DNA of 54,569 nt from positions 1-54,569 of the IMG/VR virus record IMGVR_UViG_3300025886_000032, one strand, 5' to 3'. Shown here piece by piece: positions 1,522 to 49,860 of this stretch. The number at the start of each line of letters is the position of its first letter. Within the stretch, counting starts at the first letter, position 1. The DNA comes from a virus. The notes under the pieces were generated by a model. It saw nothing but the letters and a program-made list of their open reading frames with translations, was not told the origin of the DNA and searched no databases. A program made the translations under genes and the position numbers.

Positions 1522-2200
1522 ATGTTCTAGCTCTTGATGTTAATGTATTTTGTTCTGGTAATTGATCTTCATATAAGTGTAAGTTATGTGCAAAATGATA
1601 GTATTCACCCATTGCATAACCTGTTCTCTTAGACACTAGTTCTTGTAGCTTACTGAAACAATATTGATCAATACAGAAACCGAACCAGAGATCATTAGAT
1701 CGCATCGTAACACACATATTAAGCTTGTTATCTACAACTGTAAACTGTACAGCATACGTGCAGGGTGTATCATACTTATAGTTAGATATTTCCTTGCCAT
1801 CATATATAGATATTGCAGCTTGTCTAGTATTAGGATTATTCTTTAACATAGCTACAACTCTATCTAATTGATAGCCTCTTTCCCATTGCGCGCCATAGTT
1901 AGAATTAACCTTACCATTTTCATCAGCCATCTTTTGCCATATCTGAGGTATCTTACCATATATACTACCAAGAGTATCTATTGTAGGCTCACCAGATAAA
2001 TACCATTGCCATTCAGCTTCAGCATATTCAACGTTAAAGTTTCTAGCTTCATTAGTTATCATACGATCTAAAGGATTTTCAATAGTAAAACCTTGGTTAA
2101 ACATTGCCATCGTGTTATCAAACTTATTACCTTCATGTGGTATTACACCATAGTAAAAGTTAAAAGCTTCATTTGCGTTTTTAAATTTATATTCTATCAT
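1514..2200 (-). CDS. ThyA-family enzyme, probable deoxycytidylate (dCMP) hydroxymethylase-like
   Basis: 228 residues, shorter than typical ThyA (~264). Family marks: E63 in the E-x-x-W-x-x-G motif, NYGAQWE at 101-107, catalytic Cys147 in DTPCTYAVQF, R167-S168-N-D170, and HLY at 208-210. The position matching E. coli ThyA Asn177, which selects dUMP, is Asp178 here (FGFCID versus LGLPFN). An Asp at this site is the known hallmark of T4-type dCMP hydroxymethylase. I therefore infer action on dCMP rather than dUMP. The ATG at 2200 lies 6 nt after a promoter-like GATAAT. It could still be a divergent thymidylate synthase. Confidence 0.75.
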   Translation of the reverse strand: MIEYKFKNANEAFNFYYGVIPHEGNKFDNTMAMFNQGFTIENPLDRMITNEARNFNVEYAEAEWQWYLSGEPTIDTLGSIYGKIPQIWQKMADENGKVNSNYGAQWERGYQLDRVVAMLKNNPNTRQAAISIYDGKEISNYKYDTPCTYAVQFTVVDNKLNMCVTMRSNDLWFGFCIDQYCFSKLQELVSKRTGYAMGEYYHFAHNLHLYEDQLPEQNTLTSRARTYG

Positions 2201-2206
2201 ATGTTT

Positions 2207-2237
2207 ATTATCCCTTACCTTTCGTATTTAGTTTGTA
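2207..2237 (-). promoter_or_regulatory. Promoter-like element 1 (TACAAA-19-GATAAT), before the ThyA-family gene
   Basis: Read on the minus strand: TACAAA (2237-2232), AATAC inside the spacer, and GATAAT (2212-2207) after 19 bp, with 6 nt to the ATG at 2200. It lies entirely within the 3' end of the upstream 89-residue gene, whose last codons and stop are made from it. The same layout occurs eight more times in this arm. Confidence 0.6.
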
Positions 2238-2477
2238 ATAATGTCTATACATTTCAAATAACTTAGGTAGTATTTCATGTTTTTTATATTCGCCTGGGCT
2301 AATCATTTCTTTGTTATTAGCTACAATCCTTATTTTCCAATTTTGATTTTTAAAACCTTCAGCAGCTGCTAGCATACCTATTTTTATTCCGTGGTTTATA
2401 CACCAACTGTATGCAGCTTGATCTTCTTTAGTTCTCTTATATGGATCAGGTTGTACGCATTTATCAACTAGTCCCAA
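2208..2477 (-). CDS. Hypothetical phage protein (89 aa)
   Basis: 89 residues, starting MGLVDKCVQPDPYK. I do not recognise a domain. It is basic towards the C-terminus, with two Cys and several Trp/Tyr. It overlaps the end of the primase-helicase gene by 10 nt, so it is probably translated from the same transcript. Its C-terminus (YKLNTKGKG) is encoded by promoter-like element 1, so those residues may reflect DNA constraint rather than protein function. Confidence 0.6.
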   Translation of the reverse strand: MGLVDKCVQPDPYKRTKEDQAAYSWCINHGIKIGMLAAAEGFKNQNWKIRIVANNKEMISPGEYKKHEILPKLFEMYRHYYKLNTKGKG

Positions 2478-5816: not shown

Positions 5817-6572
5817 TTACAGATAATCAATCACTTGCGAGTGATCTACATTATCTATTAACTTGTTTACTGCTTGCTTTTTAAGCTCTGATACTCTTAC
5901 ATATGCAGATACCCCTTTAATTTCTAAACCTGCTGCTATATCATTAGCAGACCACTTTTTTCCATCAAGGCCATAGCTTTTATTTAAAACAAATACTTCG
6001 TCAGAAGTTAGATGTTTATTTAATAAACTTAATATATAAGCATTAAGCAGTGTTTCATTGTAAGGATCTGATTTATCAGGTATTTGATAAACCATATCTT
6101 CATCTGATGGATTAGCATCGATACTTAAGAATATGCTATTAAAAAACATAGCAACCATCTTTTTATCTTTACCACCATCTTTACGCATTTCATTTAGCTT
6201 ATGCTCAGGTATACGCATTGTACCTCTATTTATATCAATAGCTCTACGTATTCCACCTCTTATTCTTTTAGCTAAAAATGATTTTAAAGTTTTTTCAATA
6301 TCTTCAGATTCAAATAATCTAGTTCTATCTATTTTATCTACAGCTTTACATAATTGTAAACTACCTTCTTGTATTATATCGTTTATAGACATAACACCTG
6401 AAGCTTCTTGCGATGTAGCAAACTTTCTTGATATATTTTCTACTAAAGGTAAGAATATTACTTTAAGTTCTTCAGGCTTATAATCAACAAATCTTTTTGA
6501 TTTAACTGCTTCAATAACTCTTTTAACATCTTCTTTATACCTAACGTAGTTTTTTACATTATATTTTTTCAT
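5817..6572 (-). CDS. Phage-encoded RNA polymerase sigma-70-family factor
   Basis: 251 residues. Region 2-like segment at about 55-125, with NDIIQEGSLQLCKAVDKID and a following helix RGGIRRAIDINRGTMRIP, matches the core-binding and promoter-melting part of sigma-70 factors. Region 4-like helix-turn-helix at about 188-240 (LTSDEVFVLNKSYGLDGKKWSANDIAAGL). Region 1.1 and a clear region 3 are absent. It should redirect host RNA polymerase to phage promoters, and the repeated TACAAA/GATAAT elements are the obvious candidate targets (inference). It overlaps the HTH gene by 14 nt. Confidence 0.85.
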   Translation of the reverse strand: MKKYNVKNYVRYKEDVKRVIEAVKSKRFVDYKPEELKVIFLPLVENISRKFATSQEASGVMSINDIIQEGSLQLCKAVDKIDRTRLFESEDIEKTLKSFLAKRIRGGIRRAIDINRGTMRIPEHKLNEMRKDGGKDKKMVAMFFNSIFLSIDANPSDEDMVYQIPDKSDPYNETLLNAYILSLLNKHLTSDEVFVLNKSYGLDGKKWSANDIAAGLEIKGVSAYVRVSELKKQAVNKLIDNVDHSQVIDYL

Positions 6573-7179
6573 GTTGTCTATTTAATAATTCTTTTTCTCT
6601 TTTAAGTTCTTCACCCATGTTTCTATGTATTGTTCTTTGTGAGCATTTTAAAACTTCAGCTAATTTAGCTATTGTAATTTTACTTTGCTCATGTATGTAT
6701 AGCATTGCATCGTATATATCATCTTCTTTAATGCTTTTACCTTTACCAGCTATTGTACCTACAATGCTTAGTTTCTCACTAGTACTTAAACCTGTACCAT
6801 CTTTAAATACTATTTTACGTAATCTATTTTTAGGTGGTCGATCAAGATCTTCCATATACACTTCATAGATCATATTGTTTAGTATTTGTTCAGGTACTTC
6901 AAAAGTAATAAATCCATTGTTTTCATAACATATATACTCAGATAGGTTTCTAAATTCATCCATAGTTAATTTAGGATTTAGATACCATAAGGTTAATAGA
7001 TGCCATTTTAAAGACTTATAACTATTAATCTTAGCTTTAGTATTAAACAATGAATAGTAATCGTATGTACCTTCTTCATAATGCCAACCCCAACCATAAG
7101 TCGATGTTGGTGTATCAGAAGAATACTTACGATATATTACTCTGTTTTGGTTTAGATATTTTAAATTACGGTGTGACAT
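6559..7179 (-). CDS. HTH-domain protein, possible transcription regulator
   Basis: 206 residues. The C-terminal helix-turn-helix is recognisable at about 168-195 (ITIAKLAEVLKCSQRTIHRNM), similar to helices of sigma or Crp/winged regulators. The N-terminal ~130 residues are unassigned and rich in Tyr/Trp. Its placement immediately before the sigma factor with a 14-nt overlap suggests a regulator or accessory of the same transcriptional switch. The start codon region is part of a 46-bp palindrome (7172-7217), which could mean autoregulation. Both points are inference. Confidence 0.65.
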   Translation of the reverse strand: MSHRNLKYLNQNRVIYRKYSSDTPTSTYGWGWHYEEGTYDYYSLFNTKAKINSYKSLKWHLLTLWYLNPKLTMDEFRNLSEYICYENNGFITFEVPEQILNNMIYEVYMEDLDRPPKNRLRKIVFKDGTGLSTSEKLSIVGTIAGKGKSIKEDDIYDAMLYIHEQSKITIAKLAEVLKCSQRTIHRNMGEELKREKELLNRQHEKI

Positions 7180-7217
7180 TAGCCCCTTACTCTATATCCT
7201 TAGAGCCTATTGTCACA
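7172..7217. repeat. Imperfect palindrome copy A (46 bp)
   Basis: Outer arms TGTGACAnTAG and CTAnTGTCACA, with the variable base T on both arms (a T-T mismatch when folded). Inside lies TTACTCTA plus a secondary stem (CTCTA/TAGAG). It spans the end of the 40-residue gene and the first codons of the HTH gene. Related copies lie at 14347 and 15160. Function unknown: operator, recombination site or RNA hairpin. Confidence 0.6.
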
Positions 7218-7309
7218 GTCATATCACCCTGCAATGTTTTAAAAATCATATCTTCGGCTTCCATATATTCTTGAAAAGAATCAAATATTGGTTTTGTTTT
7301 GTTTGTCAT
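7187..7309 (-). CDS. Small hypothetical protein (40 aa)
   Basis: Starts MTNKTKPIFDSFQEYMEAED and ends GSKDIE. No family recognised; acidic. Support comes from its ATGA overlap with the 56-residue gene upstream, which continues a chain of 4-nt overlaps through three further small genes. The last ~10 codons are inside palindrome copy A. Confidence 0.55.
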   Translation of the reverse strand: MTNKTKPIFDSFQEYMEAEDMIFKTLQGDMTVTIGSKDIE

Positions 7310-7476
7310 AAATTTCTTAAATGTTCTTTATATTTTAATAATTGTTTTCTTTTTTCTAAGTTTACTTTTCCAGTTGCTATAGCATCTTCAAATATTTCAT
7401 TACTTAATTCAGCCATACGATGTGTCACATATTTCCTATGTGATAGACATCTACGTTTTTTCATTAGTTCTTTCAT
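7306..7476 (-). CDS. Small basic hypothetical protein (56 aa)
   Basis: Starts MKELMKKRRCLSHRKYVTHR; the N-terminus is strongly basic with Cys/His, the rest helical and charged. No family recognised. It overlaps both neighbours by ATGA, which supports it as a translationally coupled gene. A nucleic-acid-binding role is possible from charge alone. Confidence 0.55.
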   Translation of the reverse strand: MKELMKKRRCLSHRKYVTHRMAELSNEIFEDAIATGKVNLEKRKQLLKYKEHLRNL

Positions 7477-7592
7477 CTTTCCCAACTATATTTAGTTTTG
7501 TCTCTTATTTTATTTAGCTTATCAATTAGTTTGTAAGCAACGTCTTCGCTGATCTCATCAGCATAAAACATATCATATATTAATCTTCTCAT
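7473..7592 (-). CDS. Small hypothetical protein (39 aa)
   Basis: Starts MRRLIYDMFYADEISEDVAY and ends YSWER. Predicted helical; no family recognised. It overlaps the genes on both sides by 4 nt (ATGA), the main evidence that it is real. Confidence 0.5.
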   Translation of the reverse strand: MRRLIYDMFYADEISEDVAYKLIDKLNKIRDKTKYSWER

Positions 7593-7759
7593 TGTATTAT
7601 TCCTTGTTTTAATAAGTTTTGTGCTGTTCTACCAAACCAGCCTTGCAATTTATATGCAAGACCAGTATCGTGTAAATGCTGCCAAGCATCTATTACTTGT
7701 TCTTCTGATTCAGCTGGTATAAAACCTTCAGCTAAACCCGTTGCTTCATAATCATTCAT
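7589..7759 (-). CDS. Small phage protein with LQGWFGRTAQNLL motif (56 aa)
   Basis: I start it at the ATG at 7759 (MNDYEATGLAEGF), overlapping the ligase stop by 8 nt; a longer frame would run far into the ligase. The segment WQHLHDTGLAYKLQGWFGRT followed by AQNLLKQGII matches a small protein I recognise from many unrelated phages, where a helix with 'TGxAWxLQGxYGRxAxxLIxxGxI' is conserved. Its function is unknown. Confidence 0.65.
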   Translation of the reverse strand: MNDYEATGLAEGFIPAESEEQVIDAWQHLHDTGLAYKLQGWFGRTAQNLLKQGIIQ

Positions 7760-8600
7760 AGTTACGTATTGCTTTATAGTGTGGATGTCTGTAACTACCT
7801 GCTTTAGTTCGTTCAAAGTATGTGAATGTAGCATACTGACCGATGTAGTCGTGTATATTTTCTAGCATATTAGCTAAGTCTTTGTAGTTGTAGCCTTTAC
7901 CTGGAGGACAACCGAATTCATTACCTTCATAATCTTGCATAATGAACTTACCTAGTGTACCTTCACGCTTACCTTTACCTATTTCATAGCCAATAATTGT
8001 AGCTTCTGCATCGTGAAAGTCTTTAAACTTCATAAGATCCCATGATCTTGTACCTTTGTACTTGCCAGATGGTGTTCTGTATATAGAGCCTTCGTAACCT
8101 AGTTTAAGGTTTTTAGCATGAAACCTTTGTGCATCGTCAAAATCTGTAGCTAATCTAGTAGAAGTAACTTCTAGTATAGAGCTGTTTCTAAACAATGGTT
8201 CAGCTAGTAAGAATAAGTTTCTGTCCGTATAAGTGCCTATTGTCATACTAGCTACATCATACATATGGTATTGTACTAGTTCTTTAGCTTCAGCTCTATC
8301 AGCATCTGTTGGTTTTCTTTTCTTAACAAGAGATATAATCTTTTCAAAGTCATCTTTTAGACCGTGGTTATATAATTCGCCGTCAAGAATAGCTGTAGGA
8401 TTTTTTGCAAAGAAAGGCTTTAAAGCTTGTTCAATGTGTTCTACATTCATAAACTGATTATTAGCACGAGAGAACGCGCCTTTGGCAGTAAATAGACAAC
8501 GTACGCCGTCTAGTTTTGGTTGTATAAATGCAGGGTAATCTGCTTTATCTTCATTGTATTTATGCGCTAGCATAGCTTTAATATTTTCCTGATCCGTCAT
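7752..8600 (-). CDS. ATP-dependent DNA ligase
   Basis: 282 residues, a minimal phage-size ligase. Nucleotidyltransferase motifs in order: motif I KLDGVR with adenylated Lys29, motif III LDGELYNHG at 72-80, motif IV YEGSIYR at 169-175, motif V LMKFK at 189-193. A small OB domain follows (GYEIGKGKREGTLG ... ERTKAGSYRHP). It seals nicks in lagging-strand and recombination intermediates. It overlaps the 101-residue gene upstream by 23 nt. Confidence 0.93.
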   Translation of the reverse strand: MTDQENIKAMLAHKYNEDKADYPAFIQPKLDGVRCLFTAKGAFSRANNQFMNVEHIEQALKPFFAKNPTAILDGELYNHGLKDDFEKIISLVKKRKPTDADRAEAKELVQYHMYDVASMTIGTYTDRNLFLLAEPLFRNSSILEVTSTRLATDFDDAQRFHAKNLKLGYEGSIYRTPSGKYKGTRSWDLMKFKDFHDAEATIIGYEIGKGKREGTLGKFIMQDYEGNEFGCPPGKGYNYKDLANMLENIHDYIGQYATFTYFERTKAGSYRHPHYKAIRNYE

Positions 8601-8883
8601 TTAGTTTTTTATTTATTTTTTCAATTTTCTTTAGTATAATAGCTGCTTTTTCGTATTCTTCTTTATCTTCAAGAATCATCATAATAGTCTGCATTTTAGC
8701 TAGTTCACCTACTAACTTTTCTTCTTCGTTCATGCCGAAGTTATCAGTTACATCATTTATAACAAAACCATTTTCATATAGTTTTCTTACTTGATTATGA
8801 TAATCTTCATCCATTTGTTCTTGCTTTTCAACTATTCTATCGAATATTAGATCAGCTAGCATTTGTATTTCTTTTTTTGTCAT
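8578..8883 (-). CDS. Hypothetical coiled-coil protein (101 aa)
   Basis: 101 residues, mostly charged helix (Glu/Lys-rich). The C-terminal helix EDKEEYEKAAIILKKIEKI resembles the UVR/UvrB-C contact helix pattern (E-x-x-E-Y-E-x-A-A-x-x-L), a motif seen in small phage proteins next to replication genes. The ATG at 8883 is 6 nt after promoter-like element 2, so this gene may start the transcript that carries the ligase. Confidence 0.6.
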   Translation of the reverse strand: MTKKEIQMLADLIFDRIVEKQEQMDEDYHNQVRKLYENGFVINDVTDNFGMNEEEKLVGELAKMQTIMMILEDKEEYEKAAIILKKIEKINKKLNDGSGKY

Positions 8884-8889
8884 AATTAT

Positions 8890-8920
8890 ATTATCCGTTA
8901 GTTATCGTATTTAGTTTGTA
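8890..8920 (-). promoter_or_regulatory. Promoter-like element 2 (TACAAA-19-GATAAT)
   Basis: Minus strand: TACAAA at 8920-8915, AATAC in the spacer, GATAAT at 8895-8890, 6 nt to the ATG at 8883. This copy is fully intergenic, so its conservation cannot be due to coding. Confidence 0.65.
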
Positions 8921-9136
8921 TTATACTGATTTTAGCTTTTTAAGTCTTTTATGCTTTTCTGCATTACTTAACTCATCCCAATCACTTGGTGGTTGCCAAT
9001 CAGGTATACTAGCTCTCATTGTAGCAAAAGCTATTTTTTCTTGGTATTTGACGGCCATATCTGATAGCTCGTCACCTTGTTTAGTTGATAGATCCCCTAA
9101 CAACATAAACGCTTTCATCATATTTATATTACTCAT
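8921..9136 (-). CDS. Hypothetical protein (71 aa)
   Basis: Starts MSNINMMKAFMLLGDLSTKQ. An internal segment IPDWQPPSDWDELSNAEKHKRLKKLK is proline/tryptophan then basic helix. No family recognised. It follows the 35-codon frame at 9129-9236 with an 8-nt overlap, and its start lies about 11 nt after the hairpin at 9147-9169, so the hairpin may act on its expression. Confidence 0.55.
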   Translation of the reverse strand: MSNINMMKAFMLLGDLSTKQGDELSDMAVKYQEKIAFATMRASIPDWQPPSDWDELSNAEKHKRLKKLKSV

Positions 9137-9236
9137 ACCACGAAAAGCCCGTACCTTTTGAGTACGAGCCTGACATATGAGTAAGAGCAGTCATTTGATT
9201 AGTGTCACGGTTATCCATCCGATGGGAGTTCGACAT
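9129..9236 (-). CDS. Possible small ORF (35 aa) ending SYSKGTGFSWYE
   Basis: Frame with ATG at 9236 (MSNSHRMDNRDTNQM) ending at a stop that overlaps the next gene by 8 nt. It has four internal Met and no recognised family. The end SYSKGTGFSW is encoded by a hairpin element whose second copy at 11216 would read SYLTGMGFSW in the same phase but has no ATG. This makes it unclear whether the constraint is on RNA or protein, so this is a weak gene call. Confidence 0.35.
   Translation of the reverse strand: MSNSHRMDNRDTNQMTALTHMSGSYSKGTGFSWYE
9138..9169 (-). terminator. Conserved hairpin, copy 1 (terminator-like)
   Basis: Minus strand: 8-bp stem GCTCGTAC with GTACGGGC (one G-U pair), 7-nt loop, followed by TTTTCGTGG. 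Copy 2 at 11216-11247 has the same shape with a compensatory pair change. The U-run is short for a strong intrinsic terminator; it could also be a leader structure for the gene starting at 9136. Confidence 0.55.
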
Positions 9237-9325
9237 TTGCCTATACGCTTTGTACCTCCATATCACACATATTATTTATTCGCTGAACATTTTCACATTA
9301 TTCGTGGAAACTAAACTACTATTAA

Positions 9326-9766
9326 CTAACTAACAGTTTCTTCAATTTCTTCGGCTTCTAAGCCATATTCATCTTTTAATTCTTGTATTTCAGCTGGCGT
9401 TAAGCCATAACCTTCTTCATCATTATTTTCAATAATGTCGTCGATAGTTTCACCAAAATGTTCAAGCATTGCATCATCCATGTATAAGTCATCCCATAGG
9501 TATTCATCCATATGTAATAGAGTTTCGCTACCGCCATTGTATTGTATTTCTTCCATAACAGCAGATGCTAGATCAGATTCATAATAGTATACGTTTTCAC
9601 AGATGTTTATATCTTTTAAACTATGAGTCAATACCCATACATCATAGCCATCTACGGTGGATTCATTGTAGCAATACAAGTCACAGCCATCATTAAAGCT
9701 GTCAGTTATTGTTAAACCAAGAGCTTTCTTAGCTATTTTAATCATTTTTTCTTCAGTTAGTGTCAT
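9326..9766 (-). CDS. Hypothetical acidic protein (146 aa)
   Basis: 146 residues with a very acidic C-terminal half (runs such as DDIIENNDEEGYGL and EYGLEAEEIEETVS). The N-terminal segment KKALGLTITDSFNDGCDLYCYNE is unassigned. The strong negative charge recalls small DNA-mimic or host-takeover proteins, but nothing beyond charge supports that. The stop lies upstream of a ~90-nt non-coding stretch leading to 9236. Confidence 0.6.
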   Translation of the reverse strand: MTLTEEKMIKIAKKALGLTITDSFNDGCDLYCYNESTVDGYDVWVLTHSLKDINICENVYYYESDLASAVMEEIQYNGGSETLLHMDEYLWDDLYMDDAMLEHFGETIDDIIENNDEEGYGLTPAEIQELKDEYGLEAEEIEETVS

Positions 9767-9771
9767 ATTAT

Positions 9772-9864
9772 TTAATTTAGTATTGAGACAGTTAGTAAAA
9801 TTGTATAGATTAATAGCGCTAAAACTGCCAATATTAGCGCTAAATCTCTTTTATCTTTATGCAT
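9772..9864 (-). CDS. Single-pass membrane micropeptide (30 aa)
   Basis: Starts MHKDKRDLAL and continues as one long hydrophobic helix (ILAVLALLIYTILLTVSIL). A short basic N-terminus followed by a TM helix gives a probable N-in inner-membrane peptide. It overlaps the 116-residue gene by 8 nt. The DNA contains two TAGCGCTA palindromes inside the TM-coding part. Function unknown; small phage membrane peptides can act in exclusion or lysis timing. Confidence 0.5.
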   Translation of the reverse strand: MHKDKRDLALILAVLALLIYTILLTVSILN

Positions 9865-10207
9865 TTGACTTGTTGATTTGCTTTATTGTATATAATACAA
9901 GTCTTTTTAGTCTTTCAGCTCTGTTCCAGATTAACATTCTGTTGTTTCTTTCAAATTCAACTTTGTTACCATTCCAGTTTATAGACTTTTCAATTGTCTT
10001 ATATTGTGGATTTAGTTGATAACAAGTATATATTCCACCATTTTTGTTTAGTATATTTTTTCTAATATAACCTGTTTTGTGTTCAGATATACAGTCACCT
10101 GTTGGTAATGTAAAGCAAGTTGTACCTCTTTTTATTTGAGATGGACTTGATGTATCTTTAGCACCTAGTGCTTTCAATGTTTCTAAAGCTAGTTTTTCTT
10201 CGTTCAT
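9857..10207 (-). CDS. Hypothetical protein (116 aa)
   Basis: Starts MNEEKLALETLKALGAKDTS. The N-terminal ~60 residues look beta-rich (GTTCFTLPTGDCISEH); the C-terminus is a basic helix (NNRMLIWNRAERLKRLVL). No family recognised. Two bases separate it from the 73-residue gene upstream, so they are in one transcript. Confidence 0.55.
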   Translation of the reverse strand: MNEEKLALETLKALGAKDTSSPSQIKRGTTCFTLPTGDCISEHKTGYIRKNILNKNGGIYTCYQLNPQYKTIEKSINWNGNKVEFERNNRMLIWNRAERLKRLVLYTIKQINKSNA

Positions 10208-10209
10208 AT

Positions 10210-10431
10210 TTATTTATTTATTAGCCATTCACCCCATATAAGTTGTGACTGAGTAAGATCATGGTAAAATACATCGCCAAATGTGCAAACAGATCTTAGC
10301 TCATCAATAGTTAAGTCAGAGTAATTGTTTTTTTGTTTTAGTTTATCAAATAACCAGTTTACAGATTCATACTCTTTAGCATTTTCTTTCAATTTGGCTT
10401 TGATATGTGGTTTTAATTTATCGTATAACAT
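10210..10431 (-). CDS. Hypothetical protein (73 aa)
   Basis: Starts MLYDKLKPHIKAKLKENAKE. Helical and basic at the start, then YSDLTIDELRSVCTFGDVFY. No family recognised. Its ATG at 10431 is 6 nt downstream of promoter-like element 3, which supports both the start codon and the gene. Confidence 0.6.
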   Translation of the reverse strand: MLYDKLKPHIKAKLKENAKEYESVNWLFDKLKQKNNYSDLTIDELRSVCTFGDVFYHDLTQSQLIWGEWLINK

Positions 10432-10437
10432 ATTTAT

Positions 10438-10468
10438 ATTATCTTATAGTGTTCGTATTTAGTTTGTA
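10438..10468 (-). promoter_or_regulatory. Promoter-like element 3 (TACAAA-19-GATAAT)
   Basis: Minus strand: TACAAA at 10468-10463, AATAC, GATAAT at 10443-10438, 6 nt to the ATG at 10431. The 5' part overlaps the last codons and stop of the 65-residue gene. Confidence 0.65.
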
Positions 10469-10656
10469 ATTTGTTTTTTAGTCATAGTTTTAACCTTTTC
10501 TTTTAGCTCTTTTGATATTTGAGTATAAAAACCAGGTGCAAATATAGATGTTTTACCTTCTTTTTCCATCTGTAATATATCGCTTTCAACTTGAGCTACA
10601 TAAAAAGTAAGTGCATCTATTATAAGATGTGACTCCATTCCGTTAAATTTCTTCAT
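10459..10656 (-). CDS. Hypothetical protein (65 aa)
   Basis: Starts MKKFNGMESHLIIDALTFYV; helical, with ESHLIIDALTFYVAQVESDI as the most regular helix. No family recognised. Coupled to the 50-residue gene upstream by TAATG. Confidence 0.55.
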   Translation of the reverse strand: MKKFNGMESHLIIDALTFYVAQVESDILQMEKEGKTSIFAPGFYTQISKELKEKVKTMTKKQITN

Positions 10657-10808
10657 TATTTTAAGTTTTCTCGTCTATTTACTAAGTATTGTTCAAGTGC
10701 GTTGTAGAAATCTAATCTACTATTGTTTTCTCTAATACGTTTTACCTCGTTTAAAGGTATATCGTAATCACTTGACGTTTGTTTTAAAAAGTTTAATGAG
10801 TAGTTCAT
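10656..10808 (-). CDS. Small hypothetical protein (50 aa)
   Basis: Starts MNYSLNFLKQTSSDYDIPLN and ends VNRRENLK. The pattern 'TSSDYDIPLNEVKRI ... FYNALEQYL' looks like a short helix-turn-helix-sized domain, but I cannot assign it. It shares TAATG junctions with both neighbours, which is good evidence for a real gene. Confidence 0.55.
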   Translation of the reverse strand: MNYSLNFLKQTSSDYDIPLNEVKRIRENNSRLDFYNALEQYLVNRRENLK

Positions 10809-11197
10809 TATTTTAGTTCTTGTATTAGTTTATGTATAATTTTACCGTGATTTTCATGATAAAACTCGAACCATTCGTCTTCAAATAGCTCTAAACCTGC
10901 TTCAGTTAAGTATTCTGTTGAGTCAAATACATAGTGTTTATTCATTTCATCACAAACTGCTTGAAATATTAAGTCATAAATGTGGCCATCTAGATCTTCT
11001 ATTATATTTTTAACAGTTTGATCTACCATTGCATGCTCAAAAGGATTTTTGTGTCGAAGTTGATGTTCAGCTATTGCTTTAGCTGTAGACTCACTACATG
11101 GATGAGTTCTGTTGTCTTTAACTTTCTCAATTTGAATATCTAAAGCTCTTTGATACTCTTTTGATTGTCTAATCTCGTTTAGTGTTCTTTGTTTCAT
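10808..11197 (-). CDS. Hypothetical protein (129 aa)
   Basis: Starts MKQRTLNEIRQSKEYQRALD. Charged, helical, with several aromatic residues at the C-terminus (DEWFEFYHENHGKIIHKL). No family recognised. It is the first gene after the hairpin at 11216-11247 (about 19 nt from hairpin end to ATG). Confidence 0.6.
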   Translation of the reverse strand: MKQRTLNEIRQSKEYQRALDIQIEKVKDNRTHPCSESTAKAIAEHQLRHKNPFEHAMVDQTVKNIIEDLDGHIYDLIFQAVCDEMNKHYVFDSTEYLTEAGLELFEDEWFEFYHENHGKIIHKLIQELK

Positions 11198-11215
11198 ATT
11201 AGTTTATTTTATCTA

Positions 11216-11247
11216 CCACGAAAAGCCCATACCGGTTAAGTATGAGC
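11216..11247 (-). terminator. Conserved hairpin, copy 2 (terminator-like)
   Basis: Minus strand: stem GCTCATAC with GTATGGGC, 7-nt loop, then TTTTCGTGG, exactly as copy 1 at 9138-9169. Relative to copy 1 a G-C pair is replaced by A-T on both arms. It lies 21 nt after the stop of the 47-residue gene, a normal place for a terminator. Confidence 0.6.
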
Positions 11248-11267
11248 TATAATTCGTCAGTTGTTTG

Positions 11268-11411
11268 TCAACTTGTTACGTAAGTTAAACCTTTGTAGTT
11301 AAACCACGATGTTATGTCATCTGGTATACTATCTATAGTGTAACCTTTTAATAATTTGCCATCTAATCTAATTAGTGATCTGTCGCTTGGGTAAAATTTA
11401 ATTGTTTTCAT
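11268..11411 (-). CDS. Small hypothetical protein (47 aa)
   Basis: Starts MKTIKFYPSDRSLIRLDGKL and ends YKGLTYVTS; probably a small beta-rich domain. No family recognised. Its ATG lies 6 nt after promoter-like element 4, which supports the call. Confidence 0.55.
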   Translation of the reverse strand: MKTIKFYPSDRSLIRLDGKLLKGYTIDSIPDDITSWFNYKGLTYVTS

Positions 11412-11417
11412 GTTATT

Positions 11418-11448
11418 ATTATCTATTAGTGTTCGTATTTAATTTGTA
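11418..11448 (-). promoter_or_regulatory. Promoter-like element 4 (TACAAA-19-GATAAT)
   Basis: Minus strand: TACAAA at 11448-11443, AATAC, GATAAT at 11423-11418, 6 nt to the ATG at 11411. It is embedded in the end of the 63-residue gene: it encodes YKLNTNTNR and the stop is inside GATAAT, as at element 1. Confidence 0.65.
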
Positions 11449-11610
11449 ATCTTGTATTAGTTTTCTTACTTCTGCACCTAGTTCTTGATTATTAGGATGT
11501 TTTATAGCTAGTTCTTTAACTACTAGTGCAAAAGTTGCTAGTAAAGATCTATTATCTTCTATTTGTTGTAAATCTTTATCCATAAAATCCCACTCTCTAT
11601 CTCTATTCAT
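11419..11610 (-). CDS. Hypothetical protein (63 aa)
   Basis: Starts MNRDREWDFMDKDLQQIEDN; helical, ending in YKLNTNTNR dictated by promoter-like element 4. No family recognised. The start overlaps the 56-residue gene by 8 nt. Confidence 0.55.
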   Translation of the reverse strand: MNRDREWDFMDKDLQQIEDNRSLLATFALVVKELAIKHPNNQELGAEVRKLIQDYKLNTNTNR

Positions 11611-11773
11611 TTTCTACACTTAAACTTATTATTAAATCACCTTCATATATTTTCTTAGCTTGCATTAGTGAGTATGTCCACTTTTGCCACTCTGTTCCAC
11701 ATTTCTGTGTCCAACCGTAGATACCATCTTGTATATCTTGAGCTATTGCTTCAATTTTTTGTTGTTCAGTCAT
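11603..11773 (-). CDS. Small hypothetical protein (56 aa)
   Basis: Starts MTEQQKIEAIAQDIQDGIYG, then WTQKCGTEWQKWTYSLMQAK; Trp-rich and helical. No family recognised. ATGA overlap with the MSYCRFEN-type gene upstream supports it. Confidence 0.55.
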   Translation of the reverse strand: MTEQQKIEAIAQDIQDGIYGWTQKCGTEWQKWTYSLMQAKKIYEGDLIISLSVENE

Positions 11774-11961
11774 TGTTTTTCTATTATTTTTTGTATATAT
11801 TCTTCATTGTCTATTATGTCGACGGCTAAATCTAGCAAATCTCGCAAACCGTTTAACTCATACTCATTTAAGTTTTCTGTTTCGCCATTATTTATTGCTT
11901 GTACACAATCATTTAAATCTCTTGCAGTATTTTCAAACCTGCAGTAACTCATATTGCTCAT
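11770..11961 (-). CDS. Phage protein of the MSYCRFEN type (63 aa)
   Basis: Starts MSNMSYCRFENTARDLNDC. The opening 'MSYCRFENTxxDLxDC' followed by a helix with LNEYELNGLRDLLDLAVDI is a small protein I recognise from many phages; its function is not known. It overlaps both neighbours by ATGA. Confidence 0.65.
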   Translation of the reverse strand: MSNMSYCRFENTARDLNDCVQAINNGETENLNEYELNGLRDLLDLAVDIIDNEEYIQKIIEKQ

Positions 11962-12110
11962 TTCTTTTTAGTTTTTAATATGTTAATCTCACTTTTTAAC
12001 TGGTGGATTTCAGTTTGACACTTTCTCATTTGTAGTTTATTACCCGTATCTTGGTAAAATTGATTCCATGAGTACAAATTTTGTAATGATTTAATCTTTT
12101 TTGCTATCAT
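11958..12110 (-). CDS. Small basic helical protein (50 aa)
   Basis: Starts MIAKKIKSLQNLYSWNQFYQ and ends in a Lys-rich tail (INILKTKKK). Predicted helix or coiled coil. No family recognised. It overlaps the next gene by ATGA and the previous gene by 20 nt. Confidence 0.5.
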   Translation of the reverse strand: MIAKKIKSLQNLYSWNQFYQDTGNKLQMRKCQTEIHQLKSEINILKTKKK

Positions 12111-12351
12111 TATCTTTTATTTTAGTTATTAAATTGTGTATTTCATCATAATTGAAAGTAGAATACACCTTATCTACTTCTTTTTGTACGTATTCGTACG
12201 TAAATTCTTTCATTGAAACACCAAACAGTGAGACAACTAGATCGCGAGGTGAATAACCATAAGGAGATTTATGTTTATTGAAGATCATGAGTTTGATATT
12301 ACCGTCACCGTAATTGATTGCTGTTAAGTTGTCTGTATTTATATATTTCAT
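12091..12351 (-). CDS. Hypothetical protein (86 aa)
   Basis: Starts MKYINTDNLTAINYGDGNIK. The segment SPRDLVVSLFGVSMKEFTYEYV is helical; no family recognised. The ATG is 6 nt after promoter-like element 5. Confidence 0.6.
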   Translation of the reverse strand: MKYINTDNLTAINYGDGNIKLMIFNKHKSPYGYSPRDLVVSLFGVSMKEFTYEYVQKEVDKVYSTFNYDEIHNLITKIKDNDSKKD

Positions 12352-12357
12352 ATTTAT

Positions 12358-12388
12358 ATTATCTTTTAAGTATTGTATTATTTTTGTA
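12358..12388 (-). promoter_or_regulatory. Promoter-like element 5 (TACAAA-19-GATAAT)
   Basis: Minus strand: TACAAA at 12388-12383, AATAC, GATAAT at 12363-12358, 6 nt to the ATG at 12351. Overlaps only the last codons of the upstream zinc-finger gene. Confidence 0.65.
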
Positions 12389-12809
12389 TTAATTTTGAAA
12401 GTTTTATTATATTATTATATTGGTTTTGAGATATTTCTAAATTATCTAAAGCTCTATTAATATAACGCTTTGCAATTTCTTCGTCAACTTCTAAATAATC
12501 AATGTAAGTTTTACCTATGTGCTCATAAGATTTATCGTTACCGATAGTGGTTAATGAACATCCATTTATTATTTTAGCTTTACGTTGACTTGTTGAACCA
12601 CCAGACATTGATCTTAGTATACCAAAACCTGCTCTTCGAGTAAGTTTACTAGCTTTGTCTGCATCTTCACGTGACATTACTTGAATAGTATTGCCAGTTT
12701 TATGATGGATAGTGTCAATACAACCGAGTTTTTCTTCAGTTGAACACTCGACACAGACGGTATAGCCAAGATCTAATCTTGCTTGTGGAATATTGTGGTT
12801 ACATTTCAT
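12378..12809 (-). CDS. Protein with N-terminal DksA/TraR-like zinc finger (143 aa)
   Basis: The N-terminus CNHNIPQARLDLGYTVCVEC fits the DksA/TraR C4-type finger (C-x-x-[CG]-x-x-I-P-x-A-R-L ... C-x-x-C), with C3 and C19/C22 as obvious ligands and His5 possibly replacing the second Cys. The middle (REDADKASKLTRRAGFGILRSMSGG) is basic and Gly/Ser-rich; the rest is helical. DksA/TraR proteins bind the RNA polymerase secondary channel, but this protein lacks the long coiled coil before the finger, so a polymerase role is only possible. The ATG is 6 nt after promoter-like element 6. Confidence 0.6.
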   Translation of the reverse strand: MKCNHNIPQARLDLGYTVCVECSTEEKLGCIDTIHHKTGNTIQVMSREDADKASKLTRRAGFGILRSMSGGSTSQRKAKIINGCSLTTIGNDKSYEHIGKTYIDYLEVDEEIAKRYINRALDNLEISQNQYNNIIKLSKLIQK

Positions 12810-12815
12810 ATATAT

Positions 12816-12846
12816 ATTATCTAACGGTGATTGTATTTATTTTGTA
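12816..12846 (-). promoter_or_regulatory. Promoter-like element 6 (TACAAA-19-GATAAT)
   Basis: Minus strand: TACAAA at 12846-12841, AATAC, GATAAT at 12821-12816, 6 nt to the ATG at 12809. It fills the whole gap between the two genes. Confidence 0.65.
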
Positions 12847-13068
12847 TTATTTTAAATCTTCATTAGTCATTGGTTGAAATAATTCACTTCTCATATACTT
12901 TACTATTTTTATAGTCATTTCATTGAATAAATTCATATAAGCGTCATTAGTTTCTGGGAAGTTTTCATGTTCCTGTAGTTCATATTCTAGCTCATTAGCT
13001 AGTTTTTCATATAGTGAGTCAACTACTCTCACAGTAATTTCGTCTTTTTCTTCGTTAGTTATTTTCAT
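12847..13068 (-). CDS. Hypothetical acidic protein (73 aa)
   Basis: Starts MKITNEEKDEITVRVVDSLY. Helical and acidic (ANELEYELQEHENFPETND). No family recognised. One base separates it from the gene upstream. Confidence 0.55.
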   Translation of the reverse strand: MKITNEEKDEITVRVVDSLYEKLANELEYELQEHENFPETNDAYMNLFNEMTIKIVKYMRSELFQPMTNEDLK

Positions 13069-13069
13069 A

Positions 13070-13288
13070 TTATTTATTTATTAGTAAATCTTCAGTTTCA
13101 TTTAATATATTTAAGTAGTATTCTGCATAAGTAGTATCCATACTTCCACTATTTAAATCTTCATATACCCAACTTTTAATGTATTGTACATTAGTAAGAG
13201 CTTCTTCAACTTTAGTTCCATCTTTTTTAGCTGTGTATCCAAGTAATCCACTTGCGATAACACTCATTGACATTATTATTTTATTCAT
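13070..13288 (-). CDS. Small protein with N-terminal membrane or signal segment (72 aa)
   Basis: The N-terminus MNKIIMSMSVIASGLLGYTA is a short hydrophobic segment that could be a signal peptide or membrane anchor; the rest is soluble (KKDGTKVEEALTNVQYI ...). No lipobox Cys. No family recognised. Confidence 0.5.
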   Translation of the reverse strand: MNKIIMSMSVIASGLLGYTAKKDGTKVEEALTNVQYIKSWVYEDLNSGSMDTTYAEYYLNILNETEDLLINK

Positions 13289-13299
13289 ATTATTTATAT

Positions 13300-13362
13300 T
13301 TAGTTTTCTATCATTCCCATTATTATTGATAGAGTTGTTAAGGTTATAATTATTGTTATCAT
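13300..13362 (-). CDS. Possible membrane micropeptide (20 aa)
   Basis: Frame MITIIITLTTLSIIMGMIEN, entirely hydrophobic up to the last three residues. The only support is the ATGA overlap with the 52-residue gene, matching the chain style of neighbouring genes. It may be a chance frame. Confidence 0.3.
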   Translation of the reverse strand: MITIIITLTTLSIIMGMIEN

Positions 13363-13517
13363 ATTACTTGTACTTTATATATTACTTCTTCCATTACTAT
13401 TCCTAGTTCTTCCATGAAATCTCTCATGTCGTCACAAATGTAGTTTTTATCATTAGTTAAATATAGTGGTTCTTCTATTTCACCATAGTATATTTCAAAT
13501 TCATAGTTATCTATCAT
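13359..13517 (-). CDS. Small acidic hypothetical protein (52 aa)
   Basis: Starts MIDNYEFEIYYGEIEEPLYL. Strongly acidic, with one small beta-like segment followed by a helix (DDMRDFMEELGIVMEEVIY). No family recognised. Preceded by two adjacent hairpins at 13539-13571. Confidence 0.5.
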   Translation of the reverse strand: MIDNYEFEIYYGEIEEPLYLTNDKNYICDDMRDFMEELGIVMEEVIYKVQVI

Positions 13518-13536
13518 ATTATTTATTTATTGTTTA

Positions 13537-13572
13537 AGACTACTTACGTAGTTTCGAGTATTAAACTCTCGT
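13537..13572 (-). other. Two adjacent small hairpins upstream of the 52-aa gene
   Basis: Stem ACTAC/GTAGT with loop TTAC (13539-13552) and stem GAGT/ACTC (13556-13568). They lie between the stop of the 55-residue gene at 13587 and the ATG at 13517. No U-run follows, so they look more like leader structures than terminators. Confidence 0.3.
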
Positions 13573-13586
13573 CAGTTAAACTTATT

Positions 13587-13754
13587 TTAATATCCCCATT
13601 TATCAACTTCAGATTCATAAGGTGGATTTAACCACTTTGGATTATTTACCATTTCATCATGACACCATTGTTTCTCGTTGTCACCAAGTTGTTCGTAGTG
13701 CATATCAAATTCTGACATTGCTACTTTATCTATTGTAGTATTTATATTATTCAT
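13587..13754 (-). CDS. Small hypothetical protein (55 aa)
   Basis: Starts MNNINTTIDKVAMSEFDMHY, then EKQWCHDEMVNNPKWLNPPY; acidic and aromatic. No family recognised. ATGA overlap with the 66-residue gene supports it. Confidence 0.55.
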   Translation of the reverse strand: MNNINTTIDKVAMSEFDMHYEQLGDNEKQWCHDEMVNNPKWLNPPYESEVDKWGY

Positions 13755-13951
13755 AGTACTTGATTTAGTAGTTCATAAACATCATCTTGTTGAGTTTTGT
13801 TTAGTGTCATGAAAACACCATTAGCTTCACCAGGATAATTTAGAACATGGTTTATACATTGTTGAGTAAGTTCAGCTTGATTTACTGTTTGATTCATTTC
13901 ATCAAAAGCTTTTGACCAAGACCAGTTTGAAGGATTATTTGGATTATACAT
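13751..13951 (-). CDS. Hypothetical protein (66 aa)
   Basis: Starts MYNPNNPSNWSWSKAFDEMN, then helical (QTVNQAELTQQCINHVL). No family recognised. The ~105 nt before its ATG back to promoter-like element 7 form an untranslated leader, unlike the other element-driven genes. Confidence 0.55.
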   Translation of the reverse strand: MYNPNNPSNWSWSKAFDEMNQTVNQAELTQQCINHVLNYPGEANGVFMTLNKTQQDDVYELLNQVL

Positions 13952-14056
13952 AGTTATTTATTTTATTTAGTTATTAATTAGTTTGTGGTGAGTCAAGTGT
14001 TCGTTTTATTTAGAGACGCTAAAGTATGACTATCAACTACGTCTGTTGTTTATTAT

Positions 14057-14087
14057 ATTATCTTTTAAGTATTGTATTTAATTTGTA
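14057..14087 (-). promoter_or_regulatory. Promoter-like element 7 (TACAAA-19-GATAAT), no adjacent ATG
   Basis: Minus strand: TACAAA at 14087-14082, AATAC, GATAAT at 14062-14057. No ATG lies 6 nt downstream; the next gene starts ~105 nt on at 13951. The intervening leader can fold at 14002-14041 (GACG/CGTC arms). The element overlaps the end of the lipoprotein gene. Confidence 0.55.
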
Positions 14088-14245
14088 TAAGCTGGACAGT
14101 TATTGTAGTTTTTATTTACATGCATTCCATATTTAGTTATAGATACTTTACTTGTAGTTTTACATGAAGTAGATAACATTGATAGTATTATTATTGAAAT
14201 TACTATTGTTAAAGTACCGACATGAGTTGTATTTAGTTTATTCAT
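14078..14245 (-). CDS. Predicted small lipoprotein (55 aa)
   Basis: Starts MNKLNTTHVGTLTIVISIII, then LSMLSTSCKTTSK. A hydrophobic stretch ending in L-S-T-S-C is a plausible lipobox, giving a mature lipid-anchored peptide of ~28 residues with one further Cys. Phage lipoproteins of this size commonly block receptors or DNA entry (superinfection exclusion), so that role is a reasonable guess. It sits in the early-type small-gene region. Confidence 0.6.
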   Translation of the reverse strand: MNKLNTTHVGTLTIVISIIILSMLSTSCKTTSKVSITKYGMHVNKNYNNCPAYTN

Positions 14246-14346
14246 TTTATTGTTTTTAAAAGGTGTATATTTATTTATTAGTTATTATTAGTTGTTAGGT
14301 CTAGCACTTGTTCTCTCATTAACTTACATAGTTAATATTATAAAAG

Positions 14347-14393
14347 TGTGACATTAGCTAGTTAAATAAGTAGAGTAACTACCTATTGTCACA
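14347..14393. repeat. Imperfect palindrome copy B (47 bp)
   Basis: Arms TGTGACAnTAG / CTAnTGTCACA with the variable base T on both arms of the plus strand, and TAGAGTAA inside. Inner stem TAGTTA/TAACTA. It lies immediately after the stop of the 83-residue minus-strand gene and is followed on the minus strand by CTTTTAT, so it could double as a terminator. Confidence 0.6.
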
Positions 14394-14395
14394 TA

Positions 14396-14647
14396 TTACT
14401 CAGATACTAAATGATCTAAGATTTCACTGTATTCTCTACAGAATTTTGGAACAGTATTACTATTTGTATAAGATTTGTACTGTTGGAAACATGGCATACT
14501 TTCAAACTTTTCTTGAAATGTTGAATAGATTTCATCATGATCATAAGTAAATTTATAGCCTTTTTTGTTAGTGAAAGTGATTACAGTATTTGTACCGAGT
14601 AAAGACTTTCTGATTACAAATCTTTTAGTTGTTATTTTATTATTCAT
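14396..14647 (-). CDS. Hypothetical protein (83 aa)
   Basis: Starts MNNKITTKRFVIRKSLLGTN. Basic beta-like N-terminal half (TVITFTNKKGYKFTYDHDEI), helical end. No family recognised. About 45 nt separate its ATG from promoter-like element 8. The stop is 3 bp from palindrome copy B. Confidence 0.55.
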   Translation of the reverse strand: MNNKITTKRFVIRKSLLGTNTVITFTNKKGYKFTYDHDEIYSTFQEKFESMPCFQQYKSYTNSNTVPKFCREYSEILDHLVSE

Positions 14648-14692
14648 AGTTTATATTTATTTATTTATTTATATTTAGTTTAGTTATGTTAT

Positions 14693-14724
14693 TATTATCT
14701 TTTGTAGTTTGTATTTTGTTTGTA
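14693..14724 (-). promoter_or_regulatory. Promoter-like element 8 (TACAAA-20-GATAAT)
   Basis: Minus strand: TACAAA at 14724-14719, AATAC, GATAAT at 14698-14693; the spacer is 20 bp rather than 19. The expected ATG position 6 nt downstream reads ATA; the gene starts at 14647 instead. Confidence 0.5.
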
Positions 14725-14748
14725 ATTAATTAGTTTGTATTTAGTTAA

Positions 14749-14886
14749 TTATTTATTTAACTTATTTATTAAATATTTTAACGATTCTGATAAACCAAAG
14801 TCTGTTACGTTACCGTTTAAGTATTGGTTTAATTCGTCGATAGTTGCGAGTATTTCGATTTTAGTATTATTATTTATATTTTGCAT
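14749..14886 (-). CDS. Small hypothetical protein (45 aa)
   Basis: Starts MQNINNNTKIEILATIDELN and ends YLINKLNK; Asn-rich, helical. No family recognised. It is the first gene of the leftward arm, about 50 nt after promoter-like element 9. Confidence 0.45.
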   Translation of the reverse strand: MQNINNNTKIEILATIDELNQYLNGNVTDFGLSESLKYLINKLNK

Positions 14887-14934
14887 AGTATTATTTTTAT
14901 TTAGTTATTATTTATTTATTTATCTTATACTATT

Positions 14935-14965
14935 ATTATCTTAACCACTCTGTATTATATTTGTA
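14935..14965 (-). promoter_or_regulatory. Promoter-like element 9 (TACAAA-19-GATAAT), first of the leftward arm
   Basis: Minus strand: TACAAA at 14965-14960, AATAC, GATAAT at 14940-14935. It lies at the boundary between the divergence region and the leftward genes, so it probably starts leftward transcription. Confidence 0.6.
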
Positions 14966-15159
14966 TTAAATTTAGTTAGTTAATTGAAATGTCAAAGGCC
15001 TAATGGTATCGGAGGGGCCAGGGGTAAACGTCAAACGTATACGATATGGGGAATAAAACGAAGGGGGCCCATGAAATGAAAACGTAAAAGGTTATTGGCC
15101 TTGGTCGTAGGGGGGAGGGGGCAACACAAATAATATACACATCTAATATAATTAAAAAA
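14966..15159. other. Non-coding divergence region with G-rich tracts
   Basis: No convincing gene on either strand. From about 14996 to 15125 the plus strand has repeated G runs (for example GGAGGGGCCAGGGG, GGGGGCCC and a run of six G then five G), near-palindromes CGTATACG and GGGCCC, and AAAGGCC/GGCCTT arms around 14994 and 15092. Such composition is unlike anything else in this AT-rich window. It lies where leftward and rightward transcription diverge, so an origin, packaging or control site is possible. Confidence 0.5.
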
Positions 15160-15205
15160 GGTGACACTAGGTACCTAGTATATAGAGTAACAGGCTACTG
15201 TCACA
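15160..15205. repeat. Imperfect palindrome copy C (46 bp)
   Basis: Arms GGTGACAnTAG / CTAnTGTCACA with variable base C on both arms, TATAGAGTAA inside. Same length as copy A, to which its reverse complement aligns with the core TTACTCTATAT in register. It lies in the divergence region, ~96 bp before the first rightward gene. On the minus strand it is followed by CCTTTTTTAATT. Confidence 0.6.
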
Positions 15206-21155: not shown

Positions 21156-21399
21156 ATATATAGTTATAACAGATGTTGAAGAAAAAACAAAAGAAACTAA
21201 AGGTGGTTTACTTTTGTCATCTAAACAAAGAGAAGATATTAGATACAGACAAGCTGTGGTGCTTGAAATAGGTGCCGAAGTTGTAGGTATTAAAAAAGAT
21301 GATAAAATTTATTTTGATCGTCATGCTGGTTTTGATATAGAGATAGACAGTGATATATACAAGGTAATTAAAGATTCTGATGTTGTTATAGTAATATGA
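21139..21399 (+). CDS. groES: GroES-type co-chaperonin
   Basis: 86 residues, slightly short for GroES (~97). Order of features: DVEE then the mobile loop ETKGGLLLSS, VVLEIGAEV, KKDDKIYFDRHAG, and a DSDIYKVIKDSDVVIVI end, matching Cpn10. The loop tip GGLLL corresponds to the GroEL-contacting GGIVL of bacterial GroES. It overlaps groEL by 17 nt and the next gene by ATGA, so expression should be tightly coupled. Confidence 0.93.
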   Translation: MKAVGKYIVITDVEEKTKETKGGLLLSSKQREDIRYRQAVVLEIGAEVVGIKKDDKIYFDRHAGFDIEIDSDIYKVIKDSDVVIVI

Positions 21400-21821
21400 G
21401 GCTAACATCATCTGATCTAAGAGATTTAAATATACTTAAACATTATAGGATAATACGTAAATGGGCTTGTAAAACAAACAAGCTAAATGATGCGGATCTA
21501 GAGCTTTTAATTTATTTAGACTCGTTAAAGTTATTTACAAAACATGATTTTAAACAAGGTACGTACTCCTACAGCTGGGATAATAGGCGCTGGAACAGAT
21601 TGTTAAAGAGTGGTTGGGTAGTAGTTTGGAGAAAACGAAATAGAACAACACAGAAATACAATATTTATAAAGTATCCGTAAAGTGTAAACAGCTAATAAG
21701 TCGTATGTACCGTATTATGTTAGGCGAAGAAGACATGCCTATTAATAAATTAAAAAACAACTATATGGATGTAGTTTTAAAAACTTCCATATTAAACGTA
21801 AACAAAGATAAAACAAGATAA
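21396..21821 (+). CDS. Winged-helix-like DNA-binding protein (141 aa)
   Basis: The segment LNDADLELLIYLDSLKLFTK, then WNRLLKSGWVVVWRKRNRTT and YNIYKVSVKCKQLISRMYR, has the helix-helix-strand-wing order of MarR/PadR-like winged helices. Such proteins accompany structural genes in marine phages. Basic overall. It is coupled to groES by ATGA, so it could regulate the same transcript (inference). Confidence 0.55.
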   Translation: MRLTSSDLRDLNILKHYRIIRKWACKTNKLNDADLELLIYLDSLKLFTKHDFKQGTYSYSWDNRRWNRLLKSGWVVVWRKRNRTTQKYNIYKVSVKCKQLISRMYRIMLGEEDMPINKLKNNYMDVVLKTSILNVNKDKTR

Positions 21822-35663: not shown

Positions 35664-35683
35664 AACAAACAAACAATAACAAG

Positions 35684-35707
35684 ATCCCGCTTCGGCGGGG
35701 TTTTTTT
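35684..35707 (+). terminator. Strong intrinsic terminator
   Basis: Stem CCCGC, UUCG tetraloop, GCGGG, then seven T (35701-35707). Textbook rho-independent terminator on the plus strand. Confidence 0.9.
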
Positions 35708-43906: not shown

Positions 43907-43919
43907 AAAATTAAAAAAT

Positions 43920-43935
43920 AAAGTGATTATATATT
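43920..43935 (+). promoter_or_regulatory. Weak candidate promoter abutting a start codon (AAAGTGATTATATATT)
   Basis: AAAGTGATTATATATT runs directly into the ATG at 43936. It resembles the 36480 element, but the distance to the start codon leaves no leader, so it may simply be an A/T-rich translation-initiation region. Confidence 0.2.
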
Positions 43936-46212: not shown

Positions 46213-46218
46213 TATTAT

Positions 46219-46620: not shown

Positions 46621-46626
46621 ATAAAT

Positions 46627-47343: not shown

Positions 47344-47358
47344 AAAATAAATAATATT

Positions 47359-49854: not shown

Positions 49855-49860
49855 TATAAT

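What the first reader, a model, noticed from the sequence alone, without database searches (positions are those of the whole stretch)
7172..15205. Three-copy 46-47 bp palindrome with a matched-identity mismatch
Copies at 7172-7217, 14347-14393 and 15160-15205 share arms TGTGACAnTAG / CTAnTGTCACA and a core TTACTCTA (copy A on plus, B and C best on minus). The variable n is the same base on both arms of each copy (T-T, T-T and C-C as read on plus; no Watson-Crick pair), so every copy keeps one mismatch at the same place. Copies A and C have equal length with cores in register. One copy spans the start of the HTH gene and another is in the divergence region, which suggests an operator or recombination site rather than a plain terminator.
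Basis: seen in the sequence. Interest (0 to 1): 0.68.

Follow-up and report, generated by a model that had tools for sequence, protein, structure and literature searches.

The report
Phage dyad with forbidden base pairs
A family of marine bacteriophages carries two to four copies of one 45-50 bp two-armed DNA site next to key genes, probably a switch read by a phage DNA-binding protein, and the two arms almost never match at the two positions that would lengthen their pairing.

Summary
Copies A (7172-7217), B (14347-14393) and C (15160-15205) share inverted arms TGTGACAnTAG/CTAnTGTCACA and a core TTACTCTA, with n mismatched across the dyad in each. The window is a fragment of a marine podovirus related to Flavobacterium and Cellulophaga phages. 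Another 34 related records of about 60-70 kb carry roughly 2-4 sites each; one always overlaps the start codon of the same HTH gene (30/30 inspected), with others in the divergence region. The mismatch is a rule: over all 2.9 million viral contigs, sites with otherwise perfect arms have A..A/T..T in 79 stretches, other mismatches in 38, and Watson-Crick combinations tested (A..T, T..A, S..S) in none. A second rule sits at the base just outside TGTGACA: 3 Watson-Crick of 99, 32 expected. Continuous arm pairing thus stops at 7 bp or less, and when one position does pair a neighbour usually mismatches. Best reading: a double-stranded regulatory site (operator), most likely bound by the HTH protein, under added selection against a longer hairpin. 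The binder and the reason for the pairing limit are inferred. I found no support for a recombination site or a terminator. A functional hairpin and a phage-sigma promoter are not excluded.

The parts
7172..7217 (+). Dyad site A (class H); on the gene strand its 3' arm holds the start codon of the HTH gene (CTA ATG TCA CA)
   Evidence: position conserved in 30 of 30 relatives
14347..14393 (-). Dyad site B, between two leftward (early-region) genes; core TTACTCTA on the minus strand
   Evidence: best R1 match in the window, 64 bits
15160..15205 (-). Dyad site C (class D), in the divergence region; core on the minus strand
15113..15150 (-). Conserved promoter-like element (consensus ...AAATATrGGnGTATrGTGTTGCCCC); in most records its GTGTTGCC starts 28-33 bp past the site, 33 bp in the window
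6559..7179 (-). HTH protein P0001 (206 aa, C-terminal HTH, N-terminal domain without known relatives): candidate cognate regulator
   Evidence: in 35 of 35 site-bearing large records and in neither of the two site-less relatives
5817..6572 (-). Sigma-factor-like protein (251 aa), next gene in the operon; second protein with the same presence pattern
21396..21821 (+).

Best explanation
The element is a phage-family-specific regulatory site in double-stranded DNA: two inverted half-sites, roughly (A-tract)-TGTGACA-n-TAG-nnnn-TTA, around a short asymmetric core. Most likely the phage HTH protein whose gene starts inside copy A binds it. At copy A it would limit its own expression by blocking the polymerase or start region; at B, C and the late-operon copies it would switch the promoters just downstream of the site. 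Shown: the sites, their conservation, their fixed places, and the ban on Watson-Crick pairing across the dyad at position 8 and at position 0. Inferred: that the sites bind protein, that the binder is the HTH protein, the direction of regulation, and that the pairing ban reflects selection against a hairpin stem longer than about 7 bp, the protein needing symmetric half-sites while a longer stem in mRNA or single-stranded DNA would be harmful.
For: Conserved sequence beyond chance: 59 contigs hold the 18 specified bases, against only 2 GTDB hits in a collection several times larger. Sites in 35 of 36 related IMG/VR records searched (the exception is an 11 kb fragment), none in MW202828 or elemoA. 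The HTH gene is in all 35 large site-bearing records and in neither site-less relative, and its ATG lies in the arm at the same place in 30 of 30. Class D sites keep a 28-33 bp distance to a conserved promoter-like element in most records. Sites also lie just downstream of a terminator-like stem and about 30 bp before a structural gene in some relatives. Sequence of both half-sites is conserved, while variable stem positions 1 and 2 change on one side without compensation, which fits protein reading rather than a maintained helix. Pairing ban: position 8 Watson-Crick 5 of 88 (32.0 expected); collection-wide 0 against 79+38; position 0 3 of 99 (32.2 expected). Continuous stems of 8 or more in only 3 of 88 sites, about 37 expected. 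Compensation: with position 0 paired, 17 of 18 have a mismatch at 1-3 (67 of 147 otherwise, p=7e-5); with position 8 paired, 7 of 9 have one at 9-10 (38 of 165 otherwise, p=0.001).
Against: No binding data. The sigma-like protein has the same presence pattern as the HTH protein. Orientation and distance to genes differ between classes, so one mechanism for all copies is assumed. Nothing shows that a longer stem is harmful: G-T combinations at position 8, which would pair in RNA from one strand, are not avoided (8 observed, 3.9 expected). The 7-bp limit could instead define a functional hairpin. Position-0 avoidance is weak in the most divergent degenerate sites (8 against 10.8 expected, n=40), though strong where the arms are otherwise perfect.
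Confidence: 0.5

Rival explanations
1. A functional hairpin (RNA, or single-stranded/cruciform DNA): a 5-7 bp stem that must be open at both ends is read by a phage or host protein, for instance to control translation of the HTH gene or to process transcripts.
For: The mismatch is position-specific and bracketed on both sides of TGTGACA. Copy A holds the HTH start codon. REP elements are known hairpins whose sequences carry T-T mismatches (PMC7709200, abstract).
Against: Stem pairs at positions 1 and 2 are broken in 36% and 23% of sites with at most one compensating change. Positions 12-16 show no robust covariation. Orientation to the neighbouring genes is inconsistent. No Rfam match at the sites.
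Confidence: 0.2
2. Promoters of the phage's own sigma-like factor: GTGACA as -35 and the AT-rich core as -10.
For: The sigma-like gene is in 35 of 35 site-bearing records and absent from both site-less relatives. GTGACA-N16-TATxxT fits copies A and C.
Against: Promoter-like matches in the region equal the shuffled number (50 against 51.9). The AT-rich part is variable in letters and length. Copy A would point away from the HTH gene, and a dyad is not expected of a promoter.
Confidence: 0.1
3. A recombination, inversion or mobile-element end (attC-like, dif-like, MITE or REP).
For: Inverted arms around an asymmetric core; copies flanking the early region in opposite core orientation in nearly all records.
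Against: Fixed positions, 2-4 copies per genome, no recombinase or Y1 transposase among scanned ORFs, and no inverted assembly noticed.
Confidence: 0.06
4. Plain intrinsic (bidirectional) terminators with conserved sequence.
For: Many non-H sites have an A-rich 5' flank and a T-run after the 3' arm (37 of 70).
Against: Not called as terminators; stem held to 7 bp with mismatches at its base; the HTH-start copies mostly lack the T-run (6 of 18 have one); sequence far too conserved.
Confidence: 0.04

Closest known systems
Dyad operators of phage repressors and activators (general knowledge)
   Same: Two inverted half-sites; a copy at the gene of a phage HTH protein and copies near divergent promoters
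   Different: TGTGACA boxes about 32-34 bp apart; asymmetric conserved core; a rule that the two halves must not be complementary at positions 0 and 8; binder unproven
Mycobacteriophage stoperators (PMC9283540, abstract)
   Same: One regulatory sequence repeated across a phage genome
   Different: Stoperators are numerous, asymmetric and bound by a monomeric repressor; here 2-4 dyads in fixed places
Integron attC sites (PMC8946536)
   Same: Imperfect inverted repeat whose imperfections matter
   Different: No integrase found, no gene cassettes, no R/L boxes of the attC type
REP elements with RAYT transposases (PMC7709200, PMC2817692, abstracts)
   Same: Short palindromic repeat; REP-related sequences carry T-T mismatches
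   Different: Low copy number, conserved location, no Y1 transposase found
Perfect palindrome GTGTCGTTAACGACAC of the relative MW202828
   Same: Repeated in the early region of a related phage, often just upstream of genes
   Different: Perfect palindrome without spacer, unrelated sequence, more copies; absent from the window

Membership tests
Phage dyad operator | Inverted half-sites conserved in sequence | tested here: met
Phage dyad operator | Located at promoters or starts of regulated genes | tested here: met
   (gene starts seen; promoters themselves are predicted, not mapped)
Phage dyad operator | Cognate DNA-binding protein encoded by the phage | tested here: inconclusive
   HTH gene present in all large site-bearing records and absent from the two site-less relatives; the sigma-like gene shows the same
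Phage dyad operator | Protein binds the duplex site | not testable with these tools
   needs gel shift or footprint
Intrinsic terminator | G+C-rich stem followed by a T-run | tested here: not met
Structured RNA family | Compensatory changes in the stem | tested here: not met
   no Rfam match
Site-specific recombination site / attC | Recombinase encoded nearby | tested here: inconclusive
   none among ORFs scanned; not every ORF scanned
REP/RAYT element | High copy number, variable positions, Y1 transposase | tested here: not met
   2-4 copies in fixed positions; transposase not found in scanned ORFs
Phage-sigma promoter | Conserved -35/-10 pair at fixed spacing with a mapped start | tested here: inconclusive
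   no conserved -10 in A2, promoter matches at chance level; start sites not testable

The most novel reading that the evidence does not exclude
A new class of nucleic-acid signal in which selection actively bans Watson-Crick pairs at both ends of a 7-bp inverted repeat, so that the arms' limited self-complementarity is itself the signal (a bracketed hairpin read as DNA or RNA), used by a large marine phage group to control the HTH gene and its early and late transcription units.
Probability: 0.2. Interest if true: 0.78.

Novelty: new variant of a known kind. Interest (0 to 1): 0.56.

Why it matters
It gives a ready-made map of the likely main regulatory sites of a widespread, mostly uncultured marine phage group, with a candidate regulator of unknown fold. 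The pairing ban is an unusually clear sign of selection on self-complementarity in a regulatory DNA site: it can be seen without any experiment, and a reporter with two base changes would test it.

Tried and rejected
Rfam: no match at the sites; the only hit was a sub-threshold RsmY at 35631-35704. Known phages: no sequence match to the consensus except chance Aeromonas hits, and no tblastn match to the HTH protein. PDB fold search: nothing significant; one unnamed viral model, A0A516MIB4, at E 2.5e-8. GTDB genomes: two pattern hits, taken as chance. A rule 'exactly one half carries T at 8 / G at 0' was weighed against 'no complementarity'. The second fits better, because combinations lacking T that do not pair are not depleted, and because which half carries G0 is not linked to which carries T8 (35 same, 45 different, p=0.31), which also argues against an oriented asymmetric complex. 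Terminator avoidance as the only reason for the ban was set aside because most HTH-start copies lack a T-run. Literature searches found nothing on this element.

Full report
WHAT IS THERE. Three copies of one dyad lie at 7172-7217, 14347-14393 and 15160-15205. In the orientation set by the core they read TGTGACA-n-TAG-nnnn-TTACTCTA-n(variable)-CTA-n'-TGTCACA. In each copy n and n' are the same base on a strand and cannot pair (T..T, T..T, C..C on +). Copy C has G instead of T as its outermost + base. Shuffled sequence never gives three such sites.

WHERE IT COMES FROM. The window is an IMG/VR record of 54,569 bases. Terminase, portal and capsid-region proteins match PHROG families, and the terminase is 64% identical to MW202828 and 45% to Flavobacterium phages of the elemo group. 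Host assignment to Flavobacteriia is inferred from these relatives.

HOW WIDESPREAD. The 18 specified bases of the left half and core occur in 59 viral contigs. Two hits in the far larger GTDB collection look like chance. A covariance model built from 41 sites finds sites in 35 of 36 related IMG/VR records and none in MW202828 or elemoA. It reports both strands, so 4-8 matches mean about 2-4 sites per record. Some further TerL relatives, all partial records, gave no match.

WHERE THE SITES SIT. (1) Class H: in all 30 HTH loci inspected the start codon of the HTH gene (P0001 homologues, 50-88% identical in A3) lies in the 3' arm on the gene strand, reading CTA ATG TCA CA in most, and in some records the preceding gene runs into the site. 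(2) Class D: in the divergence region; the site usually ends 28-33 bp before a conserved element ...AAATATrGGnGTATrGTGTTGCCCC; window copy C is of this kind. (3) Class B: between same-strand early genes; window copy B. (4) Late-operon copies, just after a terminator-like stem and about 30 bp before a structural gene, in some relatives only (L118, L141, L174, L180, L229). From the coordinates the class H site and the upstream sites are about 5-11 kb apart in most records, and the upstream sites have the opposite core orientation in all but one or two cases. I tallied this by reading the tables, not with a script.

THE PAIRING BAN. In 88 non-redundant sites the position-8 bases form a Watson-Crick pair in 5 cases against 32.0 expected from the column make-up; the result survives strong thinning (4 against 15.3 at n=40; 2 against 7.8 at n=20). 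An unbiased collection-wide test used exact arms with different n: A..A/T..T 79 stretches, mixed W..S 38, A..T 0, T..A 0, S..S 0. Among the 99 distinct exact-arm sites held, position 8 is never Watson-Crick, and the base just outside TGTGACA (position 0) is Watson-Crick in 3 against 32.2 expected. None of 174 sites has a perfect arm over positions 3-11. The longest continuous stem is 8 or 9 in three sites and 7 or less in 85 of 88, while shuffling the 3' letters gives about 37 sites with 8 or more. Where position 0 does pair, 17 of 18 sites have a mismatch at 1-3 (67 of 147 otherwise); where position 8 pairs, 7 of 9 have one at 9-10 and the other two at 3 or 7. These site counts include related sequences, so their p-values (7e-5, 0.001) overstate independence.

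WHAT THE BAN MEANS. Bases about 31 bp apart in a duplex can feel each other's complementarity only if the strand folds back, or if a protein needs unequal halves. The second idea predicts that the unequal letters at positions 0 and 8 keep step; they do not (35 same half, 45 different, p=0.31). A needed helix predicts compensating changes at the variable stem positions 1 and 2; there are almost none. That leaves selection against a longer fold-back as the reading I prefer, on top of sequence-specific contact with each half. Predicted RNA hairpins of natural sites are weaker (-13.7/-15.0 kcal/mol on the two strands) than those of arms recombined between sites (-15.6/-16.8) and of sites with both pairs restored (-19.0/-20.0). 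In Flavobacterium johnsoniae, translation initiation is tuned in part by mRNA structure around the start codon (PMC6847099), which would fit copy A. Against an RNA-level cause, G-T at position 8 is not avoided. The level at which selection acts is open.

WHO READS IT. P0001 has a C-terminal HTH (weak matches to HTH_11, HTH_23, HTH_7) and an N-terminal part without known relatives (model pLDDT 85.6; no significant PDB match). It is present in all 35 large site-bearing records and missing from MW202828 and elemoA. The sigma-like neighbour has the same pattern. The winged-helix protein at 21396 does not discriminate: it is in all 37, though its relatives in the two site-less phages are distant (31% and 21%) and could have another specificity. 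A gene whose start lies inside a copy of the site is the usual sign of self-regulation, hence my preference for P0001.

VERDICT. A real, conserved, family-specific regulatory dyad with a previously unreported pairing rule, as far as the held literature shows. Its function as an operator is likely but unproven.

Noticed in passing
window 2195-2245, 8878-8928, 10426-10476, 11406-11456, 12346-12396, 12804-12854, 14682-14732 (also 14053-14088): A repeated promoter-like sequence on the minus strand, about ACAAACTAAATACG-N10-GATAATATAA, near starts of small leftward genes; probably the early promoter of this phage group. Similar sequence follows class B sites in relatives (L010, L201, L247).
   Followed up: partly
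L145 (MW202828) 43729-49918: The nearest named relative has a different repeated element in its early region, a perfect palindrome GTGTCGTTAACGACAC, often just upstream of genes; absent from the window.
   Followed up: partly
window 14990-15135 and the same place in relatives: A G+C-rich stretch next to copy C without an obvious gene; its start (GTGTTGCCCC...) is conserved next to class D sites in relatives; could be an early leader, an origin or a packaging signal.
   Followed up: partly
window 35631-35704: Sub-threshold RsmY-like match (27 bits, gathering 57) ending in a strong hairpin with a T-run, probably just the terminator before the gene at 35730.
   Followed up: no
window 19599-21155: The phage encodes a GroEL-like chaperonin (phrog_5725, E 2.5e-133), as do MW202828 and elemoA.
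   Followed up: no
G007: 67077-67123 and 795-841: Two sites with identical scores near the two ends of the record, suggesting a redundant end of the assembly.
   Followed up: no
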